A stretch of 64,000 nucleotides of DNA from assembly GCF_006912135.1 (NCBI RefSeq), contig NZ_VIRS01000002.1, forward strand, positions 248,001 to 312,000, written 5' to 3'. Positions 47,448-58,022 of the stretch are shown here, piece after piece (positions within the stretch are counted from its first letter, which is position 1; the number at the start of each line of letters is the position of its first letter). The notes below the pieces were generated by a model. The model saw only the letters and a list, made by a program, of their open reading frames with translations. It was not told the DNA's origin and ran no database searches. The translations under genes and the position numbers were made by a program. The stretch is from Cryptosporangium phraense. Lineage in GTDB: Bacteria > Actinomycetota > Actinomycetes > Mycobacteriales > Cryptosporangiaceae.

Positions 47448-48437
47448 TTAACTAAACCGTGCGTAGACGTTGTGCGGGAAGACCGTCGGCACCTGGTAGC
47501 TCACCTCGTCCAGCGTCCGCCCGACCGAGCTCGGAACCTCGACGTCCAGCGCGCCGACGTTCGCCTCGAGCTGTTCGACGGTCGTGGCGCCGATCAGCGT
47601 GCCGGCCACCCCGTCCCGTCCCGTCACCCACTTCAGCGCCAGCTGCGCCGGGTGGCACCCGATCGCCTCGGCGGCCTCCCGCAGCGCCTCGACGACGGCC
47701 CAGTCCCGCTCGGTCGGCGCGGGTTCCCGGCCCGGCCACCCGCGGGTCAGCCGGCCCTCTCCTCCGTCCGGCGAGTACTTCCCGGTGAGCAGGCCGTTGG
47801 CCAGCGGCGACCAGGCGACGACGCTCATCCCGAGGTCGCGGGCCGCCGGGACGAGCTCCCACTCGATCGTGCGCTGCAGCAGCGAGTACTCGAGCTGCAG
47901 GGCGGCGACCGGTTCCCAGCCCCGGTGATCGGCGACGAGCTGGGCTTTCGTCGTCCACCAGGCCGGTACGTCGCTGAGCCCGACCGCGCGCACCCGACCG
48001 TCGCGGACCAGAGCGTCGAACGTGGACATGACCTCCTCGGGAGGCGTCATCCGGTCCCAGAGGTGCAGCCAGTAGAGGTCGACGTAGTCGGTCCGGAGGC
48101 GACGGAGGGACGCCTCCAAGGCGGACAGGATGTGTTTGCGGCCGTTGCCGCGGCCGTTCGGGTCGGTCGCGTCGACCGGGCCACCGAACTTCGTGGCCAG
48201 GACCAGCCGGTCGCGGGCGCCGGTCTCCTCGACGAAGCGGCCGACGAGCTCCTCGCTGGCGCCGCCCCCGTAGATGTTCGCGGTGTCGACGAAGTTGCCG
48301 CCGAGGTCGAGGTAGCGGCGGAAGATCTGGCGGGCCTGGCCGGGGTCGGCGTGCCAGGCGGCCGAGCCGAACGTCATCGTGCCGAGGCCGAGCGCGGAGA
48401 CGCGGAGGCCGGTACGGCCGAGGAGGTGGTAGCGCAC
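47448..48437 (-). CDS. Aldo/keto reductase
   Basis: This 329-residue NADPH-dependent TIM-barrel oxidoreductase has the catalytic tetrad: Asp and Tyr in FVDTANIYGGGASE, Lys in LVLATKFGG, His in DLYWLHLWD. The N-terminus MRYHLLGRTGLRVSALGLGT and the late motif IGATTVEQLEANVGAL are standard for the family that includes YajO/Tas-like enzymes. The substrate is unknown. It is divergent from a MerR regulator, a pairing frequently seen for this AKR group. Confidence 0.92.
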   Translation of the reverse strand: MRYHLLGRTGLRVSALGLGTMTFGSAAWHADPGQARQIFRRYLDLGGNFVDTANIYGGGASEELVGRFVEETGARDRLVLATKFGGPVDATDPNGRGNGRKHILSALEASLRRLRTDYVDLYWLHLWDRMTPPEEVMSTFDALVRDGRVRAVGLSDVPAWWTTKAQLVADHRGWEPVAALQLEYSLLQRTIEWELVPAARDLGMSVVAWSPLANGLLTGKYSPDGGEGRLTRGWPGREPAPTERDWAVVEALREAAEAIGCHPAQLALKWVTGRDGVAGTLIGATTVEQLEANVGALDVEVPSSVGRTLDEVSYQVPTVFPHNVYARFS

Positions 48438-50793: not shown

Positions 50794-52218
50794 TCAGAGC
50801 GGCCAAGCAGAGATCAGCTCGTCCGGCCGAAGGGTCTTCAGGCCGTCGACGCTGGAGCCAGTCCGACTGATGGCGATCAGCGCGGTGTCCGCGGATGCGC
50901 CGGGTAGGCGGTCTCGGTGCTGAGCCAGTCGAGCCAGATCTCTCACGTCGAAGGCGGCGCGGTCGTGCCATTTGATCGATCCGACTGCGGTGATGCGTTT
51001 TGCTACCGGACTGCGGTCTGCCGCGACGATGTCGATCTCAGGATCGTTGTTCCGGGTCCAGTAGCTCCCGACCACGTCGCTGCCGTCCGGAAGCTGGTCG
51101 TCAGCGAGACGCCAAAGGCCGTCGCGGACTACCGGCTCGATCGCGCGGCCTCGCCAATCGGTCCAGCGTGAGCGAATGCCCTGCAGGACCAGGTCTCCCC
51201 GACCGCGCTCGATCGTGGGGATTCCGGCTCGGACGAAGGCGAGCCAGAACCGCAGATAGGGATCGCTGATCCGATAGCGCGTCAGCTTGCTGGCCTGCGT
51301 CGACAACGGAAGTTCTGATGTCACCATCTGGCGTGAGACAAGGACGTCCAACGCCCTGGTCAGCGTGGCCGGTGACATTCCGCCGGCCTCCCTGGCGATC
51401 AGCGTAAAAGTGCGCTCGCCATTGCCGATCGCAGCAAGTACCTGCTGCGCCAGTGCCTCGGTGGGAAACTCTGCCGCAAGCACTCGTTCGCCGCTGACCA
51501 GCAGCGGCGACGTGGGGCGGCCGAGAGCAGCTGCCAGGTAGATCCAGAGGTTCGCGCCTTCAGGCCATTCCTCCAGAATGAGCGGCAGCCCACCGGTTAC
51601 GAGGAAGGCATCGAACGCGTCCGCAGCGCGCAGTCCCAGCATCTCGCCTACTTCGGCGGGGTTGAGGGACGGCACGACGAGGTCGGTGCCGCGCTGATAG
51701 AACGGTCGGCCGTAGGTATTCAGCTCCTGCATCATGCCGATGTCCGATCCGATCAAGATGAGCAGGACCGGCAAGCGGGAGAGGGTGCGGTCGAACGCCT
51801 TCTGGAGAGAGCCTTCGAAGGTCACATCCTCGCGGACCAGGTACGGTAGCTCGTCCAGAATGACGACGCTCGGGGTGTCGGTCGGAAGAGTCTGGCCGAG
51901 CACGCCTAGAGCAGCGTCCCAGGTCTGTGGTGTGCCGAAGTCGGCCACAAGCTCTGCGTGCGGCAGGTCCGACTCCGCAATCGCAGCGGTGAAGCCGGCC
52001 AAATCTTGGGAGCGAGACCCACCCACTGCGGTGAAATACACGCTGGGCAGGCCAGATCGTTCTATGAACTCCTCGACCAGGCGCGATTTTCCGACCCGTC
52101 GCCGCCCGCGGATCAGCAGCGCCTTGCCCGGCCTTCCGGTCCGGCTGCCAGAGGCCACGCCGGTTACCAGGTCGGACAGCAGCTTCAGCTCACGTGCCCG
52201 TCCCACAAATCCGGCCAC
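50794..52218 (-). CDS. AAA ATPase with DUF234 domain
   Basis: This 474-residue ATPase of the archaeal ATPase/DUF234 group has the Walker A motif IRGRRRVGKSRLVEEFI (about 36-52), Walker B VVILDELPYLV (about 125) and a sensor region (LILIGSDIGMM). It then has a winged-helix part (about 265-330) and a C-terminal DUF234 domain with a PD-(D/E)xK-like nuclease fold: DPEIDIVAADRSPVAKRITAVGSIKW (Asp about 400, with Ser-Ile-Lys in the place of the E/Q-x-K motif). Such proteins are common in mobile or defence-rich regions, with unproven function. Third codon positions are less GC-biased than in neighbours, suggesting recent transfer. Confidence 0.85.
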   Translation of the reverse strand: MAGFVGRARELKLLSDLVTGVASGSRTGRPGKALLIRGRRRVGKSRLVEEFIERSGLPSVYFTAVGGSRSQDLAGFTAAIAESDLPHAELVADFGTPQTWDAALGVLGQTLPTDTPSVVILDELPYLVREDVTFEGSLQKAFDRTLSRLPVLLILIGSDIGMMQELNTYGRPFYQRGTDLVVPSLNPAEVGEMLGLRAADAFDAFLVTGGLPLILEEWPEGANLWIYLAAALGRPTSPLLVSGERVLAAEFPTEALAQQVLAAIGNGERTFTLIAREAGGMSPATLTRALDVLVSRQMVTSELPLSTQASKLTRYRISDPYLRFWLAFVRAGIPTIERGRGDLVLQGIRSRWTDWRGRAIEPVVRDGLWRLADDQLPDGSDVVGSYWTRNNDPEIDIVAADRSPVAKRITAVGSIKWHDRAAFDVRDLARLAQHRDRLPGASADTALIAISRTGSSVDGLKTLRPDELISAWPL

Positions 52219-52290: not shown

Positions 52291-52439
52291 TGCGTGGTAG
52301 CTACCTGTCGCGACCGCGCGGCAATTTGGCGGCGCCGCGCTGAGCGGCCTCGGTCAGGCTCGCCTGGGGCGGGTCGTAGGGTTGCAGCCCAGTCAAAGCG
52401 TGGCCGGTTGCGTCCGGTGTTCAGGCTGAGGTGGTCACG

Positions 52440-52817
52440 ATGGAGATCGCGCTGGCCGGATGCACGTTGGACTCGTTCGAGTGGGGCTTCTCTGTGAATC
52501 TCGCCTTCTCGGCGGGGTGGGAGGTGCGTATCGAAGGCCGCTTCGGCCTACGCACACCGCACGCGGGCGTGATGGTCGACCCGGCCACGTATTACGGACG
52601 CGAGATCGCATCGCCGGCCCTTGCCGCGCTGGTCGGGCGCGCGGTCGAGGCGGCCGAGGTGAGTCGGTCCGGGCTTCTCGCGATCACCTTCGATCGTGGC
52701 CCGGCGCTCACCGTCGGGCCGGATGACGAATATGAATCGTGGACGGTGGCTGGACCGGGCGGCGTGAAGGTGATCTGCGGGCCGGGCGGGGAAGTCACTT
52801 CATGGCCTGCGGGTTAG
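52440..52817 (+). CDS. DUF6188-like small protein
   Basis: This 125-residue protein resembles the DUF6188 family of small actinobacterial proteins: a beta-rich start ALAGCTLDSFEWGFSVNLAF, then EVRIEGRFGLRT and a C-terminal PDDEYESWTVAGPGGVKVIC. Such proteins often occur near toxin or immunity genes, but a role has not been shown. ATG 52440 is preferred to GTG 52431. It lies left of the first msrA-tail copy and could be cargo of a further element whose outer boundary is lost. Confidence 0.65.
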   Translation: MEIALAGCTLDSFEWGFSVNLAFSAGWEVRIEGRFGLRTPHAGVMVDPATYYGREIASPALAALVGRAVEAAEVSRSGLLAITFDRGPALTVGPDDEYESWTVAGPGGVKVICGPGGEVTSWPAG

Positions 52818-52857: not shown

Positions 52858-53049
52858 GGGCGGCCCGACTGTGTCTCGGACCGCCCAGAGTCGTGCGGAC
52901 CGCTAAAGCGTCAGTGCGCGGGGCCCGGGACCTCGACGTCGGTCTGCGCCGGCATCGCGCCGACACCGATCGGGCACGACAGCCCGTTGGACCCGTGGTT
53001 GCAGTACCCGTACGGGTCCTTCGCGTCCAACAGGTACTGCTGGTGGTAG
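52858..53049 (-). pseudogene. msrA 3'-end copy 1 with terminator
   Basis: This displaced tail (coding part 52911-53049) has an intact frame: [20 protein letters not shown] and onward to the stop. It includes both C-terminal Cys residues that resolve the MsrA disulfide. It has no start or upstream part. It is about 82% identical to the tail of the intact gene (25 differences in 139 by eye), many of them silent, so it is a diverged allele. The terminator hairpin (52858-52886, GGGCGG...CCGCCC) travels with it. Right of the junction is unrelated DNA. Confidence 0.85.
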
Positions 53050-53080
53050 CAGTCGCGATCATGTGCATTTTCGGCATCGC

Positions 53081-53098
53081 GAATACCTCGGAGTATTC
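53081..53098. promoter_or_regulatory. Inverted repeat near the element end
   Basis: GAATAC-CTCGGA-GTATTC is a perfect repeat 31 bp inside the element from the copy 1 junction. It could be a recombinase arm site or an operator for the toxin-antitoxin genes. Between 53099 and 53256 I see no gene. Confidence 0.45.
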
Positions 53099-53256
53099 AC
53101 AACTTGCTTCTGGGTCTGCCGGTCACTGACCGCGAAGACCGAGCCTTTGCCGACATGACGGTCCCTCATCGCGATGCCGCTGTGCGAGCGCTGCCCCGCC
53201 ATCTCAGTGCGCTCGTCGGTGTGCTGAGCGGTCCGGGCGGAGCCGAGGTTTGCTTA

Positions 53257-53290
53257 TCTCCCGCGCGAGAGCAAAACGCTATCTTGGAGG
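53257..53290 (+). promoter_or_regulatory. Operator and ribosome-binding site of the RHH/Doc pair
   Basis: TCTC-CCGCGC-GAGA (53257-53270) is an inverted repeat 28 bp before the antitoxin start, where RHH antitoxins usually bind. GGAGG at 53286-53290 decides the start: it is 8 bases from ATG 53299 but only 2 from ATG 53293. Confidence 0.55.
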
Positions 53291-53298
53291 ACATGGCC

Positions 53299-53496
53299 AT
53301 GACTCTTCGTCTGGATGACGCGCAGACCGAGGCGCTTCGCCGTCGGGCGGAGGTCGAGGGCCGCAGCATGGAGCAGGTGGCGTCGGCGGCTATCAACGAC
53401 TACCTGATGCGGGCCGACGACGATGCGCTCACTGAGCAGTTGGCGGCTCAGGGCGCCGAGCGCTTTGCCGATCTACTGCGTCGCCTCGGCGAGTGA
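53299..53496 (+). CDS. Ribbon-helix-helix antitoxin
   Basis: This 65-residue protein has an RHH DNA-binding fold at the start: the strand MTLRLDDAQTEALRRRAEVE and helix GRSMEQVASAAINDYLMR. A C-terminal helical tail (ADDDALTEQLAAQGAERFAD) should bind and neutralise the toxin. The ATG at 53299 has GGAGG at correct spacing. The stop overlaps the GTG start of the Doc-type gene by 4 nt. The pair is probably autoregulated from the palindrome upstream. Confidence 0.85.
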   Translation: MTLRLDDAQTEALRRRAEVEGRSMEQVASAAINDYLMRADDDALTEQLAAQGAERFADLLRRLGE

Positions 53497-53870
53497 CCCG
53501 CTTCCTCACCACCGAGCAGGCGCTCGTCATCGCGCGGTACGCCGTTGGCGGCGATGTCCAAATTCGCGATTTCGGCTTGCTGGACGCGGCGGTGCATCGT
53601 CCGCGGGCAGGGATGTACGGCCAGGAGGCCTATCCCGACGTGTTCACGAAAGCAGCGGCGCTGCTGCATTCTCTGGCGGCGAACCACCCGCTGGTAGACG
53701 GCAACAAGCGCCTGGCGTGGCTCGCGACGTACGTATTCTGCGCGAAGAACGGTGTCCTACTCGATCCGGCCGACGATGACGCGTATGACTTCGTCGTAGA
53801 CGTGGCTTCCGGCGAACTGAGCGACGTCGCCGAGATCGCCGACCGTTTGAAGACCTTCGTTCGGACATGA
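53493..53870 (+). CDS. doc: Doc-type Fic toxin
   Basis: This 125-residue Fic/Doc family protein has the core motif NHPLVDGNKRLAWLATYVF, matching HxFx(D/E)GNxR with Val replacing Phe. Upstream is DFGLLDAAVHRPRAGMYGQ, typical of Doc. Doc phosphorylates elongation factor Tu and stops translation until the antitoxin is restored. It is coupled to the RHH antitoxin (GTGA overlap); the usual Doc partner Phd is replaced by an RHH protein, as in several actinobacteria. It is the cargo of the first msrA-tail element and stops 4 bp before the copy 2 terminator. Confidence 0.9.
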   Translation: MTRFLTTEQALVIARYAVGGDVQIRDFGLLDAAVHRPRAGMYGQEAYPDVFTKAAALLHSLAANHPLVDGNKRLAWLATYVFCAKNGVLLDPADDDAYDFVVDVASGELSDVAEIADRLKTFVRT

Positions 53871-53873
53871 ACT

Positions 53874-54057
53874 GGGCGGCCCGGCTGATGCCGGACCGCC
53901 CGTGATCACGCGTTAGAGCGTCAGTGCGCCGCGCCCGGAACCTCTACCTCGGTCTGCGCCGGCATCGCCCGACACCGATCGGGCACGAAAGCCCATTCGG
54001 ACCATGGTTGCAGTATCCGTACGGGTTCTTGCGTCGGAAAGATACTTCTGGTGGTAG
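53874..54057 (-). pseudogene. msrA 3'-end copy 2 with terminator
   Basis: This is the tail copy closest to the intact gene (about 89% identical by eye). It has two single-base deletions, one in the codons for DAK and one in those for GVGAMP, so its frame is broken. The hairpin (53874-53901, GGGCGGCCCGG...CCGGACCGCCC) is identical to that of the intact gene. It ends at the same junction base as the other copies, before ATGTCCCTTTCGG. Confidence 0.85.
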
Positions 54058-54120
54058 ATGTCCCTTTCGGGACCCCACCTCAGACGGCTCGATCGCGCGA
54101 GTTGTTCCGTGGGAGTTGAG

Positions 54121-54730
54121 ATGAAGGTTCGCTGCCGGAAGATCGTCAGCCCGGTCGATGGGTCAAGTCTCGCGGAGAGTGCCTGGCTTCGGGTTGGTGC
54201 GGAGTACGTGGTACCCACGGTGCTCATCCCTGCCGGCGGCCGCATCGAGGTTCGAGTTCTCGCGGAGGACGGAACGCCAGGCTATTGGCCGGCCGAGATG
54301 CTCGAGACCACCGATGAAGCGGTGCCGGCGAACTGGGGGCTAACTCGATTTCGACGGCACTCTCAGGCTCGGTCCGCGTGCCTGGCTCAGACGAGGGTTC
54401 TGGGAGGACTTCTTCGATCGCGTGCCGGAGGCCGAGGCCCAGTACGAGCGGGAGTTGTCGGTGATCCGCGGTGACCGGGTCGCGCTGACGGTGTGGCGCG
54501 ATCAGCTGCCGCTCTTGGCCAACTGCGTGAACGAGGCGATGGAGGCGGTCGAGGATTGGGAGTTCTCGACACGATTGGGCGCGGAGAAGGCTGATGCTCG
54601 TCGCCTGCGCGCCGAGCTGGCGGACCTGATCTGGGCTCAGGTCCTTCCAGTTCTCAGAGTCGAGCGCGCGCTTCAGCTACGAGCCACTCGATTGCGGCCA
54701 CCGGGGCCTGTCGGTCTCCGGACATCCTGA
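54121..54730 (+). pseudogene. Frameshifted hypothetical gene
   Basis: The first part, from ATG 54121, encodes MKVRCRKIVSPVDGSSLAES and continues to VPANWGL near 54345. Sensible coding then continues in another frame as LDFDGTLRLGPRAWLRRGFW and FFDRVPEAEAQYERELSVIR to 54730. One base at about 54345 separates the frames; either a sequencing error or a real mutation could explain it. The combined product of about 200 residues is soluble and not recognised. If real, the gene is dead or makes a 117-residue protein with an altered end. Confidence 0.5.
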
Positions 54731-54866
54731 AGGTCCGCGCACCTGTGGTCCCGTCCTCGAAAACTTCGGCGACCTGCTCGCCGTCGGGGCCGGTCAGCTC
54801 AAGAGCCATGCCATCGCGGTCGCCGACAGAACTGGCAAGGATGAGGCGGTAGCCGGCGACGCTCAA
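54654..54866 (-). CDS. Small hypothetical protein, last gene of the STAS operon
   Basis: This 70-residue protein has YRLILASSVGDRDGMALELT, VAEVFEDGTTGARTFRM and APVAAIEWLVAEARARL. It uses a TTG start that overlaps the STAS gene stop (TTGA), giving strong support for coupled translation. Its 3' end overlaps the opposite-strand broken gene by 77 bp. The family is not recognised. The beta-then-helix layout and acidic character would suit a small partner protein. Confidence 0.6.
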   Translation of the reverse strand: MSVAGYRLILASSVGDRDGMALELTGPDGEQVAEVFEDGTTGARTFRMSGDRQAPVAAIEWLVAEARARL

Positions 54867-55210
54867 TACGGGTGCCTGTGCAAATCGAAGGTACGCACTG
54901 CGGCGTCGCTGAGCCGGATGAAGGTGAGCGACCTGCTGTGGTGCGCAGCGTTTCGGCGAATGTCAGAGAAGGACGTCAACGCCGTGTCGTGAAGGGTGGT
55001 GACGTCACCCAGGTCGATGAGAATGTCGGAACGCGGAGCTGCCTCGGCAGCGCTCACCGCCGCCGCGAGAAGTGGCCCTGACCACTGGTCTACGTCCCCG
55101 GAGAAGTCCAGGCGTAGCCGATGGCGGCCCGGCAGGAAGATTCTCAGCTGCGGTTGGCGCCGGGACGGTGGCTGCGGGGCGAGCCGTCTAGGGCGTTCGG
55201 ACGGGTCCAT
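54863..55210 (-). CDS. STAS-domain protein
   Basis: This 115-residue protein has a basic Pro/Arg-rich N-terminus (about 1-22) and a STAS fold: LRLDFSGDVDQWSGPLLAAA, SDILIDLGDVTTLHDTALTS and SLTFIRLSDAAVRTF. In anti-sigma antagonists the loop after the third strand carries a phosphorylatable Ser; here the matching site reads HDTALT, so Thr may take its place. ATG 55210 overlaps the upstream stop (ATGA). It is the third gene of a minus-strand operon of four in the second element. STAS proteins elsewhere switch sigma factors or kinases, but no partner kinase is present here. Confidence 0.78.
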   Translation of the reverse strand: MDPSERPRRLAPQPPSRRQPQLRIFLPGRHRLRLDFSGDVDQWSGPLLAAAVSAAEAAPRSDILIDLGDVTTLHDTALTSFSDIRRNAAHHSRSLTFIRLSDAAVRTFDLHRHPY

Positions 55211-55755
55211 CACCGGAGAGGCTCCGTCTGCGGCGTGGGTTCTGCCCGTGCGAGAAGGCGCTGCTGCTCGGGAGATATCGCATAGTCGACCTCGGTCAGC
55301 GTCGTGCGGGTTCCGGGTAGCCGCAGTTCCAGGACGATGCACAGGTCGAGGTCGGCGGTGAGTTGACCATCGGCGTCGGGATCGTCGGCGTGAATGAGTC
55401 GGAGCGTCGCGGTCCGGCGTTCGACGGTCACCGGGCCGGCCAGGCGCCAGTCGTGCTGAGGGCGTCCCCAGATCGGGAGGTGCCGGGGACGGAGGAATGC
55501 GGCGGGATTGTCGGGCAGGCTCAGCGGGATCGACGGCCCGCGCTGCCAGCGTCCGCGCCCGACCCGGATCTCGCTCGCTTCTGGCCCGCTGATCATCACG
55601 TAGTCGTCGTCTTGTTCGACGAGCCACAGCCCGCGGTCGGTCCAGACGATCCGGCCGGTCTGCCGCCCGGACCGGTCGTCGTGCCGAACATAGGAAGCGG
55701 TGAGTTGTTTCGTGCGCTGACCCAGCAGATAGCCGGCGACCTCGATCGGTTCCAC
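55210..55755 (-). CDS. Hypothetical protein, paralogue of the next gene upstream
   Basis: This 181-residue soluble protein begins MEPIEVAGYLLGQRTKQLTA. The middle has RIVWTDRGLWLVEQDDDYVM and ISGPEASEIRVGRGRWQRGP, and the end EVDYAISPEQQRLLAR. The same pattern (EVAGxxLG, GRxVxxD, WL, MSGPxxSExRxGR) appears in the 55761-56285 product, so the two are diverged duplicates. It overlaps the STAS start and follows its paralogue by 5 bp. No enzyme motif is seen. Two related binding subunits or a paired sensor are possible. Confidence 0.65.
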   Translation of the reverse strand: MEPIEVAGYLLGQRTKQLTASYVRHDDRSGRQTGRIVWTDRGLWLVEQDDDYVMISGPEASEIRVGRGRWQRGPSIPLSLPDNPAAFLRPRHLPIWGRPQHDWRLAGPVTVERRTATLRLIHADDPDADGQLTADLDLCIVLELRLPGTRTTLTEVDYAISPEQQRLLARAEPTPQTEPLR

Positions 55756-55760
55756 GGCGA

Positions 55761-56285
55761 TCAGCCTCGGACGCGCTGGAGTAGCGCGAGGTCGGGACCG
55801 CTGACCTGGAAGCGGACGTCAGTCAGGGTGGTGTGGCCGTGGATGTCCGCGAAGTCGAGAATGTGTCCGTGGGCTAGATCGACCCGCAACCGACCGCCGA
55901 GACCGGGATGTTCGAGACTGACCAGCGGCACCTCGGCGATGGACCCGGTAACCCGAACCGGGTCAGCGAGCCGATAGGGAGCGGAATAGGCCCAGAGGTA
56001 GGCGAGCCGGGGCACCAGCATCGTCCCGGGGTTCCGCATCCCGAGGAACGGGATGCCGTGCTCGCTGCGATCGATGAGCTTCCGGCCGCTCCGGGTCTCG
56101 CTGCCACCCGGCCCGCTCATCTGCTGGAACCCATCGGTTCGGGAGTTGAGCCAGACCTGGCCGGCGTCCATGAGCACGAACCGGCCAGAGTGCGATGAGC
56201 CGTCGATATCCTGATCGGCATACTCGGCGGTGACGGCCGCAGGGTGCGCGCCGAGCATCCGACCGGCGACCTCCATCAGGTCCAT
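55761..56285 (-). CDS. Hypothetical protein, first gene of the STAS operon
   Basis: This 174-residue protein starts at ATG 56285 (ATG 56276 or upstream TTG/GTG codons possible): MDLMEVAGRMLGAHPAAVTA, GRFVLMDAGQVWLNSRTD, MSGPGGSETRSGRKLIDR, then FADIHGHTTLTDVRFQVSGP. It is a paralogue of the following gene and of unknown family. The N-terminal 45 residues form a helix and beta hairpin, the rest mostly beta. It begins 46 bp inside the element from the copy 3 terminator and heads an operon of four genes reading away from msrA. Confidence 0.65.
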   Translation of the reverse strand: MDLMEVAGRMLGAHPAAVTAEYADQDIDGSSHSGRFVLMDAGQVWLNSRTDGFQQMSGPGGSETRSGRKLIDRSEHGIPFLGMRNPGTMLVPRLAYLWAYSAPYRLADPVRVTGSIAEVPLVSLEHPGLGGRLRVDLAHGHILDFADIHGHTTLTDVRFQVSGPDLALLQRVRG

Positions 56286-56330
56286 ACCTGTCAGATCGAC
56301 CGAGACAGCAGCCTCGCTTAACAAAACGAA

Positions 56331-56518
56331 ACAGGTGGCCCGACCAGAGTCAGACCACCTGTCGTCAACGGCCGGTGCGTCAGTGCGTCGCGCCCGGAAC
56401 CTCTACCTCGGTCTGCGCCGGCATCGCCCCGACACCGATCGGGCACGACAGCCCGTTGGGTCTGTGGTTGCAGTACCCCTACGGGTTCTTGGCGTCCGAC
56501 AGGTAATGCTGGTGCTAG
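56331..56518 (-). pseudogene. msrA 3'-end copy 3 with terminator
   Basis: The coding part (56380-56518) is about 85% identical to the intact tail. It is full length but has stop codons: TAC of the NPYG motif has become TAG, and the first Tyr codon (YHQQ) is also TAG. The terminator hairpin has diverged to ACAGGTGG...CCACCTGT with both arms changed together, so base pairing is kept. The junction is at the same base as in the other copies. Confidence 0.85.
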
Positions 56519-56581
56519 CGATCTTGAACAGGTGCATATTCGCGATGGTCGATGGAACCCGATGACGTGCGATTCCCGCGG

Positions 56582-56951
56582 CTAAGGCAGCAGTGTTAAC
56601 GCCTCGACATGCTTAGGCCGGACGATCGTGAAGTGCCGTTTGTCGAGCGTCGCGATCTCCGTGACCTTCAAGCGCTCGGCGAGCGCGATGACCGGCCATG
56701 CGGCCGTAGTCCGTCGGCGTGAGGTCGACGATTTGAAAGTCGCCCTCCGCCATCGATCGGAGAAATACCGCCTCGACCTGCGGTCCCGACTCCCGCGCTA
56801 GGAGGTGGCCGACTTCGGCGACCACCGTTGCCGGCACGAGAAGCCGACGACCGGCAAGGTGCATGCCGGTGAACAGTTCGGTGCAGGCATGGTGGTCAGG
56901 ATCGTCGGAGAGCGAGGCGGCTACGAGCGGGCCGGTATCGCACAGGATCAC
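56582..56951 (-). pseudogene. Decayed PIN-domain toxin (VapC type)
   Basis: The N-terminal half is intact: MILCDTGPLVAASLSDDPDH (first catalytic Asp), PATVVAEVGHLLARESGP (Glu) and DFQIVDLTPTDYGRMA. An internal deletion of about 50 bases then joins GRMA, out of frame, to VIALAERL and IATLDKRHFTIVRPKHVEAL. The lost piece held the third acidic residue (the GTxDAS motif). The stop of the original frame is at 56582. The in-frame product would be an inactive 112-residue protein. It is coupled to the upstream antitoxin (ATGA). Confidence 0.8.
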
Positions 56952-57163
56952 GAACGTCCGAAGCGTTCCGAGAGGATCTCGTCGACCCTCCGAGCCACGC
57001 CGGGCCGGCGCGATGTTCCGGCACCGAAGAAGGCGGGTGGCCAGGGGCGCTGACCGGCCGGGCGCAGATGGCGGCGTAGCTCATCGAGAGCAGGAACGAC
57101 TTCCTCCTCGGGCAACTCCTCGACGATCCGACGAAGCTCGTCGCGCTCGGCGCTCATAGCCAT
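56948..57163 (-). CDS. VapB-like antitoxin, orphaned
   Basis: This 71-residue protein from ATG 57163 (or 57157) begins MAMSAERDELRRIVEELPEE, followed by a helical repeat and the C-terminal toxin-binding part with PPAFFGAGTSRRPGVARRVD. Its stop overlaps the start of the broken PIN toxin. The N-terminal helix-rich layout, with EVVPALDELRRHL, is that of antitoxins paired with PIN toxins in actinobacteria rather than AbrB-type VapB. With the toxin dead it has no obvious job left. Confidence 0.7.
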   Translation of the reverse strand: MAMSAERDELRRIVEELPEEEVVPALDELRRHLRPAGQRPWPPAFFGAGTSRRPGVARRVDEILSERFGRS

Positions 57164-57182
57164 GAGGTTACCTTCGCGCTTT

Positions 57183-57212
57183 CTTCCGGGAGATAGTTCC
57201 ACGTCCCGGAAG
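57183..57212. promoter_or_regulatory. Inverted repeat upstream of the VapBC pair
   Basis: CTTCCGGGA-N12-TCCCGGAAG is a perfect 9-bp repeat 20 bp before the antitoxin start. It is a likely operator for the pair; hairpin formation in RNA is the alternative. Confidence 0.6.
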
Positions 57213-57281
57213 ACATAGCGGACGGAGCCTTCCCGTCCTGATACCCCTAGGCGTGGACGTAACTTGCTCAGAATTCAATGA

Positions 57282-57465
57282 GGGCGGCCCGGCTGATGCC
57301 GGACCGCCCGCGTCGAACAAAGAGCGTCAGTGCGCAGCGCCCGGAGCCTCTACCTCGGTCTGCGCCGGCATGTTCCCGATCCCGATCGGGCAGCTCAGCC
57401 CGTTCGGACCGTGGTTGCAGTATCCGTACGGGTTCTTGGCGTCGGAAAGATACTGCTGGTGGTAG
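57282..57465 (-). repeat. msrA 3'-end module (functional copy) with terminator
   Basis: This is the module repeated three more times to the left. It spans the terminator hairpin (57282-57309, GGGCGGCCCGG...CCGGACCGCCC) and the last 45 codons of msrA. The homology ends at 57465, the last base of the Asn codon in NYHQQ. The module encodes both resolving cysteines (residues 202 and 211). Its codons for GIGNMP differ from the GVGAMP shared by the three displaced copies. Confidence 0.88.
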
Positions 57466-58022
57466 TTCTCCGCGTAGAAGAAGTCGCCCAGCGGCTTGAT
57501 CTCCGTCGTGATCTCGCCCTTGCCCGCGGCCGTCACCACCGGCTGGAAGACCTCTCGGCTGTGCTCGGCGACCTTCGCCTGCTCGGGGGTCGTCGTGTAG
57601 ATCGCCGAGCGGTACTGGGTACCGCGGTCGTTGCCCTGGCGGTTGAGCGTCGTCGGGTCGTGGTTCTCCCAGAACGCCTTCAACAGGGTCTCGTACGAGA
57701 CCTTCGCCGGGTCGTACACGACCAGCACGGCCTCGGTGTGCCCGGTCAGACCCGAGCAGACCTCCTCGTACGTGGCGTTCGGCGTGTAGCCGCCGGAGTA
57801 TCCGACAGCGGTGGAGTAGACGCCGGGAATCCGCCAGAAGATGCGCTCCGCACCCCAGAAACAGCCCATTCCGAAGACGGCGGTCTCGTAGCCCTCCGGC
57901 CACGGGCCGGTGAGCGGGGTGTCGAGGACAGTATGGCGGGCGGCGACCGGCAGCGGCTGCGCCCGGCCGGGGAGCGCGTTCTCCGCGGAAATCAGCTCGG
58001 ACTTGCTGCGGCCGAACAGCAT
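57327..58022 (-). CDS. msrA: Peptide-methionine (S)-S-oxide reductase
   Basis: This 231-residue enzyme reduces methionine-S-sulfoxide in proteins and free amino acid. The active-site motif is [13 protein letters not shown] (catalytic Cys near residue 54). Further marks are [30 protein letters not shown] and [12 protein letters not shown], and the C-terminal part has the two resolving Cys (YGYCNHGP and LSCPIG) used with thioredoxin. An N-terminal extension of about 45 residues is normal in actinobacteria. The last 45 codons form the mobile-looking module, so the enzyme's tail may have been replaced by recombination. The coding sequence is intact. Confidence 0.95.

What the first reader, a model, noticed from the sequence alone, without database searches (positions are those of the whole stretch)
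54654..56285. Unknown four-gene operon with two paralogues and a STAS protein
Four minus-strand genes (55761-56285, 55210-55755, 54863-55210, 54654-54866) are linked by a 5-bp gap and then ATGA and TTGA overlaps. Genes one and two are diverged duplicates sharing EVAGxxLG and MSGPxxSExRxGR-like motifs. Gene three is a STAS protein with Thr in the place of the regulatory Ser. Gene four is a 70-residue protein. The set has no kinase, transporter or sigma factor partner, and it rides on an msrA-tail element whose other cargos are toxin-antitoxin systems. It could be an unrecognised defence, conflict or partner-switching module.
Basis: partly seen in the sequence, partly recalled or inferred. Interest (0 to 1): 0.72.

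Follow-up and report, generated by a model that had tools for sequence, protein, structure and literature searches.

The report
Orphan toxin-immunity operon on mobile cassette
A bacterium carries, on what looks like a mobile gene cassette, four small linked genes of which at least one resembles an antidote to a toxin made by other bacteria, so the set is more likely a shield against rival bacteria than a regulatory switch.

Summary
The operon is real, and genes 1 and 2 are paralogues (34%, E 3e-18). Gene 4 is best explained: relatives stand directly behind an Rhs/CdiA-type toxin tip (profile match to CdiA-CT 6d7y, E 1.2e-5) in 3 of 4 tip loci read. That tip was not found in the host or the other four family genomes. 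By homology, gene 4 is an orphan immunity gene. Genes 1/2 match no family library. A low-confidence model of gene 2 resembles the LolA/RseB/LprG/VioE fold. Their rare relatives lie mostly on actinobacterial plasmids. In 2 of 5 known loci they adjoin a secreted modular protein whose N-terminal part recurs in some Rhs proteins. The operon sits in an msrA-tail cassette array shared with three congeners that lack genes 1/2. Best reading: an orphan immunity operon in a mobile array, comparable in role to Bacteroidales rAID but with no recombinase seen. Neutralisation is untested, and the role of the STAS gene is open. Partner switching is not supported.

The parts
55761..56285 (-). gene 1, paralogue A, probable LolA-like fold, no signal peptide visible (174 aa)
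55210..55755 (-). gene 2, paralogue B, LolA-like fold by low-confidence model (181 aa)
54863..55210 (-). gene 3, STAS_2 protein with a degenerate phospho-acceptor signature (115 aa)
54654..54866 (-). gene 4, orphan immunity protein by homology (70 aa)
56334..56517 (-). msrA-tail copy plus hairpin, upstream side of the operon
53874..54056 (-). msrA-tail copy plus hairpin, downstream side of the cassette
52866..53048 (-). further msrA-tail copy plus hairpin
57282..58022 (-). complete msrA gene (57327-58022) with its hairpin, head of the array

Best explanation
The operon is the cargo of one cassette in a mobile msrA-tail array and is an orphan immunity operon: small cytosolic antidotes without their toxins. 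Gene 4 belongs to the family that accompanies an Rhs/CdiA-type nuclease tip (shown by homology and repeated gene order). Genes 1 and 2 would be two diverged copies of a second, LolA-fold immunity family, covering more toxin variants (inferred, moderate). Gene 3 (STAS) would be a further antidote or an accessory (inferred, weak). Mode of action: the proteins are made in advance from coupled genes, bind toxin domains that neighbours deliver into the cytosol and block them, so the host survives toxins it does not make. Shown: gene structure, paralogy, the array and the variable presence of its cargo, homology of gene 4 to tip-linked proteins, no tip found in the host. Inferred: neutralisation, and the roles of genes 1-3.
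For: Gene 4 relatives: G421, 58%, E 4.5e-18, overlapping by 4 bases the end of an RHS-core protein whose tip matches CdiA-CT 6d7y_A (E 6e-4; E 1.2e-5 as profile). Two of three further tip loci read have a gene-4-family protein as next gene (G020; G008). The tip was found in 3 of 131 genomes, not in the host nor the other four family genomes. Genes 1/2: a relative in G584 is ATGA-coupled to a 934-aa protein with a signal-peptide-like start; an Arthrobacter relative lies 83 bp from a full-length homologue of that protein (30%, 1e-94), whose residues ~40-435 recur in Rhs proteins of 3 of 17 plasmid records. One Rhodococcus relative has a SUKH protein 317 bp away. Array.
Against: Neutralisation is not shown. 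At L057 the tip has no intact gene 4 relative, and at L060 the tip is split over two frames. In 3 of the 5 gene 1/2 family loci no such secreted protein was found in the stretches fetched, and one of those is in a catabolic-looking operon. The secreted partners are alike over their whole length, whereas polymorphic toxins usually differ in their tips. No toxic activity is known for their C-terminal parts. Nothing ties gene 3 to immunity: no STAS immunity protein was found.
Confidence: 0.5

Rival explanations
1. Genes 1-3 are a self-contained new conflict or sensing module (LolA-fold pair as ligand or toxin sensor, STAS as relay), and gene 4 is a separate immunity gene that joined the operon.
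For: Tight coupling of genes 2-4. The nearest structures of gene 2 include RseB and MucB, which are sensors of sigma-factor control. A relative lies behind a SIR2_2-HerA pair.
Against: No other locus was seen with a STAS gene beside the gene 1/2 family (annotation or reading by eye). No effector in the operon.
Confidence: 0.2
2. Genes 1/2 are ligand-binding or catalytic proteins of metabolism with a LolA-like fold, as VioE is.
For: VioE is among the nearest structures. The R. fascians relative overlaps a limonene-epoxide-hydrolase-like gene and follows an oxidoreductase and a hydrolase.
Against: No enzyme of a pathway in the operon; scattered distribution on mobile elements; neighbours differ from locus to locus.
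Confidence: 0.13
3. Partner-switching regulator: the STAS protein is phosphorylated and sequesters a host kinase or anti-sigma factor, with genes 1/2 as inputs.
For: STAS_2 match above the cut-off; best solved relative is RsbV; a Thr remains in the signature.
Against: Signature degenerate; match to RsbV weak (E 0.0044); no kinase, phosphatase or sigma factor linked.
Confidence: 0.1
4. Decaying passenger DNA without present function.
For: A frame-broken gene lies in the same cassette.
Against: All four frames are open, coupled and show coding bias.
Confidence: 0.07

Closest known systems
[quoted passage not shown]
   Same: Short immunity-type genes without the cognate toxin, carried in arrays with a conserved intergenic repeat
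   Different: No recombinase seen here; cargo of mixed orientation and mixed with toxin-antitoxin pairs; the repeat is the end of msrA plus a hairpin; toxin source Rhs/CdiA-like, not T6SS
CdiA-CT/CdiI pair of P. aeruginosa PABL017 (6d7y; PMC9086364, passages read)
   Same: The toxin tip beside gene 4 relatives matches its toxin chain
   Different: Gene 4 and its family do not match any solved chain, so not its immunity chain by sequence
LolA / RseB / LppX-LprG / VioE fold
   Same: Predicted strand-helix-strand topology and nearest structures
   Different: No signal peptide visible, no Pfam match
Tandem T7SS immunity paralogues such as esaG (PMC9484751, passages read)
   Same: Adjacent diverged copies, including copies without the cognate toxin
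   Different: No relation by sequence was tested; no T7SS toxin gene in the operon
SpoIIAA/RsbV anti-anti-sigma factors
   Same: Gene 3 is a STAS_2 protein
   Different: Degenerate signature and no linked kinase

Membership tests
Orphan immunity gene (gene 4) | Homologue stands next to a toxin in other genomes | tested here: met
   3 of 4 tip loci read, one being the locus of discovery
Orphan immunity gene (gene 4) | Cognate toxin absent from the host genome | tested here: met
   Tip not found in G000 at E <= 0.01; genome 99.44% complete, 87 contigs; tips of other sequence not excluded
Orphan immunity gene (gene 4) | Neutralises the toxin | not testable with these tools
   needs the bench
Immunity protein (genes 1/2) | Homologue stands next to a toxin in other genomes | tested here: inconclusive
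   2 of 5 loci adjoin a secreted modular protein of unproven toxicity
rAID system | Predicted tyrosine recombinase | tested here: not met
   None among the 21 window ORFs given to Pfam; not every ORF was scanned
rAID system | Array of co-oriented short immunity genes | tested here: not met
   The operon is co-oriented, but the RHH-Doc and DUF6188 cargo lies on the other strand
rAID system | Conserved intergenic motif | tested here: met
   A repeat of another kind, the msrA tail plus hairpin
LolA/LppX/RseB exported proteins | Fold | tested here: inconclusive
   Models of pLDDT 49 and 46; gene 2 best E 1.2e-4 and Z 8.6, gene 1 weaker and mixed
LolA/LppX/RseB exported proteins | Signal peptide and export | tested here: not met
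   No hydrophobic N-terminus by reading the sequence; no predictor run
LolA/LppX/RseB exported proteins | Match to a curated family model | tested here: not met
   No Pfam or NCBIfam match
Anti-anti-sigma partner switch (gene 3) | STAS domain | tested here: met
   PF13466 31.7 bits, cut-off 29.2
Anti-anti-sigma partner switch (gene 3) | Intact phospho-acceptor signature | tested here: inconclusive
   HDTALT against DSTGLG of RsbV
Anti-anti-sigma partner switch (gene 3) | Linked kinase or sigma factor | tested here: not met
   None among the cassette ORFs scanned; partners elsewhere in the genome not excluded

The most novel reading that the evidence does not exclude
The msrA-tail arrays of this genus are a platform for acquired interbacterial defence outside Bacteroidales: cassettes move by exchanging the last ~43 codons of msrA plus a hairpin and collect orphan immunity operons beside toxin-antitoxin pairs. 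Genes 1/2 define a new immunity family with a cytosolic LolA-like fold against secreted, modular actinobacterial surface toxins.
Probability: 0.3. Interest if true: 0.75.

Novelty: new variant of a known kind. Interest (0 to 1): 0.52.

Why it matters
If right, acquired immunity against rival bacteria, described for gut Bacteroidales, has a counterpart in another phylum with a different vehicle (msrA-tail cassettes), and a set of unannotated plasmid proteins gains a likely function. The kind of toxin that gene 4 should neutralise can be named and tested at once.

Tried and rejected
Family libraries: nothing for genes 1, 2 and 4 in Pfam, NCBIfam, PADLOC (E <= 1) and PHROGs (E <= 1), nor in Pfam at E <= 10.

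Relatives of gene 1: only the host in 5 family genomes and in 397 order genomes; none in plasmids. Gene 2: none in phages or genome contigs. Two-row profile: 3 of 394 class genomes, the host plus G588 and G024, rejected because those matches lie opposite other genes (by eye); none in genome contigs or viral contigs. Seven-row profile: 2 of 148 genomes, the host and G533 (E 0.0098), not followed. These searches score a limited number of candidates per genome, so rarity is stated at that sensitivity.

STAS gene: only the host at E 1e-6 in 197 genomes; none in plasmids at 0.01.

Gene 4: 7 of 246 genomes at E <= 0.01. G135, G429, G457, G461 and G556 (E 0.003-0.009) were set aside as chance; stretches of three of them (L038-L040) were fetched and not read. 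G908 has a relative but no recognised toxin in the 3.2 kb seen. Tip loci L059 (G007) and L061 (G008) were not read. Gene 4 family against solved structures: no credible match.

The gene 1 model was less decisive: its VIA list mixes LolA-type folds with polo-box and other sheets at Z under 6, so the fold claim rests mainly on gene 2. VIA's own note warns that Z under 8 may mean only a common arrangement; gene 2 has 3 chains at Z 8 or more. Both models used the same two sequences, so they are not independent.

Papers on msrA as an insertion site: one listed (Paracoccus), 87 of which 20 were shown; none opened, and no title shown concerns such arrays.

On recount I corrected the Arthrobacter gap to 83 bp, told that the L060 tip is split, and stated the motif and plasmid counts exactly.

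Full report
Observation. The four minus-strand genes are present and show coding bias. Genes 1 and 2 are paralogues at 34% identity (E 3.0e-18). The junctions are a 5-base gap, a one-base overlap (TGATG) and a TTGA overlap. Gene 3 is a STAS_2 protein whose phospho-acceptor signature is degenerate (HDTALT against DSTGLG of RsbV).

Vehicle. The operon lies between two copies of a ~180-bp repeat: the last ~43 codons of msrA, the stop codon and a GC-rich hairpin. Aligned copies from the window and three congeners show a left edge at the codons for YHQQY and a right edge after the hairpin; several copies are truncated or diverged. The four window hairpins fold well (z -2.7 to -4.5), and by eye the stem keeps pairing through base changes in the copy at 56334-56359. 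Each of the three congeners has a full msrA followed by one to four tail matches nearby. With gene 1 as query, none of the three congeners, nor the fifth family genome, has genes 1/2. A VapC-like cassette with its tail is 92.6% identical between G002 and G003 over 1259 bp, while the msrA region (843 bp) is 87.9% identical; in G003 the match runs into the end of the true msrA, in G002 into a tail copy. That is what tail replacement on cassette insertion would leave. The stretch 51-58 kb has G+C 0.64-0.68 per kb against about 0.70-0.75 in most of the window. No recombinase was seen among the 21 window ORFs given to Pfam.

Gene 4. Besides the host, one of 246 class genomes (G421) has a convincing relative. 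There it overlaps by 4 bases the end of an RHS-core protein, whose tip matches the toxin chain of the complex 6d7y (E 6e-4). That tip was found in 3 of 131 genomes, not in the host or the other four family genomes. Three further tip loci were read. In G020 the next gene is a 68-aa gene 4 relative. In one G008 locus (L060) it is too, although the tip there is split over two frames. In a second G008 locus (L057) no intact relative follows. As a profile, four tips match 6d7y_A at E 1.2e-5, with the next, unrelated chain at 1.5e-3. The review PMC9086364 (passages) lists that toxin as a BECR-fold nuclease acting on tRNAs. Gene 4 is therefore an orphan immunity gene by homology; neutralisation is not shown.

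Genes 1 and 2. No library matches. The gene 2 model has low confidence (pLDDT 46), yet its first 29 Foldseek rows are LolA, RseB/MucB, ependymin-related, LprG and VioE structures, led by LolA at E 1.2e-4. The VIA list is led by RseB (Z 8.6, 122 aligned, rmsd 4.2 A) and is mostly of these groups. The gene 1 model (pLDDT 49) also ranks LolA first (E 5.7e-3) but has a mixed VIA list. No signal peptide is visible by eye.

Relatives of genes 1 and 2. tblastn of gene 2 reached an Arthrobacter plasmid protein (E 2e-4; pairwise 3e-12; gene 1 only 0.002). From it came relatives on Rhodococcus plasmids and in G584. Some of these are linked to the window only through intermediates. In the seven-row alignment one P and one W of the core motif are invariant, and LPIWG is exact in 4 of 7. 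Five intact loci outside the window are known: Arthrobacter, G584, R. qingshengii CX-1 plasmid 1, R. fascians, and one element found on six R. qingshengii plasmids (five identical copies, one at 91%). A truncated relative is on a further plasmid.

Their neighbours are uneven. In G584 the gene is ATGA-coupled to a 934-aa protein with a signal-peptide-like start. In Arthrobacter it lies 83 bp from the convergent 904-aa homologue of that protein and 620 bp behind a SIR2_2-HerA pair. Residues about 40-435 of the secreted protein recur in proteins annotated as RHS in 3 of 17 plasmid records, the others being hypothetical, PKD-domain or cutinase-family proteins or unannotated (two RHS loci seen, ~1500 aa). 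At the other three loci no such protein was found in the stretches fetched. One of them has a SUKH protein 317 bp away, one follows genes annotated, or by eye read, as recombinases, and one ends a catabolic-looking operon.

Interpretation. The most economical reading is an orphan immunity operon carried as a cassette. Gene 4 supports it well, genes 1/2 moderately and gene 3 hardly at all. Tandem immunity paralogues and orphan immunity arrays are known elsewhere (PMC9484751 and PMC12247911, passages).

Novelty. Three searches for a LolA-type protein together with immunity proteins listed no paper whose title or passages describe a LolA-fold immunity protein; only PMC12419801 was opened (passages), where LolA-like is used for lipoprotein carriers. 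Searches on msrA insertion and on orphan immunity with Actinobacteria or Streptomyces listed nothing on these arrays by title. The library lacks most subscription papers.

Noticed in passing
window 52866-57464; L025, L026, L027: Array of msrA-tail repeats (about 43 codons plus hairpin) with exchangeable cargo, shared by four genomes of the genus, no recombinase seen in it.
   Followed up: partly
window 50794-52218; L026:8594-10192: DUF234 ATPase in the array, 80% identical DNA in G002 beside tail copies; matches PADLOC candidate defence model PDC-S27, E 1.4e-21.
   Followed up: partly
window 54118-54730, plus strand: A gene on the other strand of the same cassette appears broken by a frame change (two open pieces, both with coding bias; by eye).
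   Followed up: partly
window 52431-52817, plus strand: DUF6188 protein (E 3.3e-30) in the next cassette; function unknown.
   Followed up: no
L045:3798-12300 (NZ_CP084562.1): Arthrobacter plasmid region with SIR2_2, HerA/DUF87 and DpnII-MboI-type genes around the gene 2 relative.
   Followed up: no
L050, L051, L052: One gene 2 relative on six R. qingshengii plasmids of two strains, behind tyrosine recombinase genes in two of the three regions viewed.
   Followed up: partly
window 48079-48177: ARAGORN calls a 99-nt tRNA-Trp, unusually long; possibly a false call.
   Followed up: no
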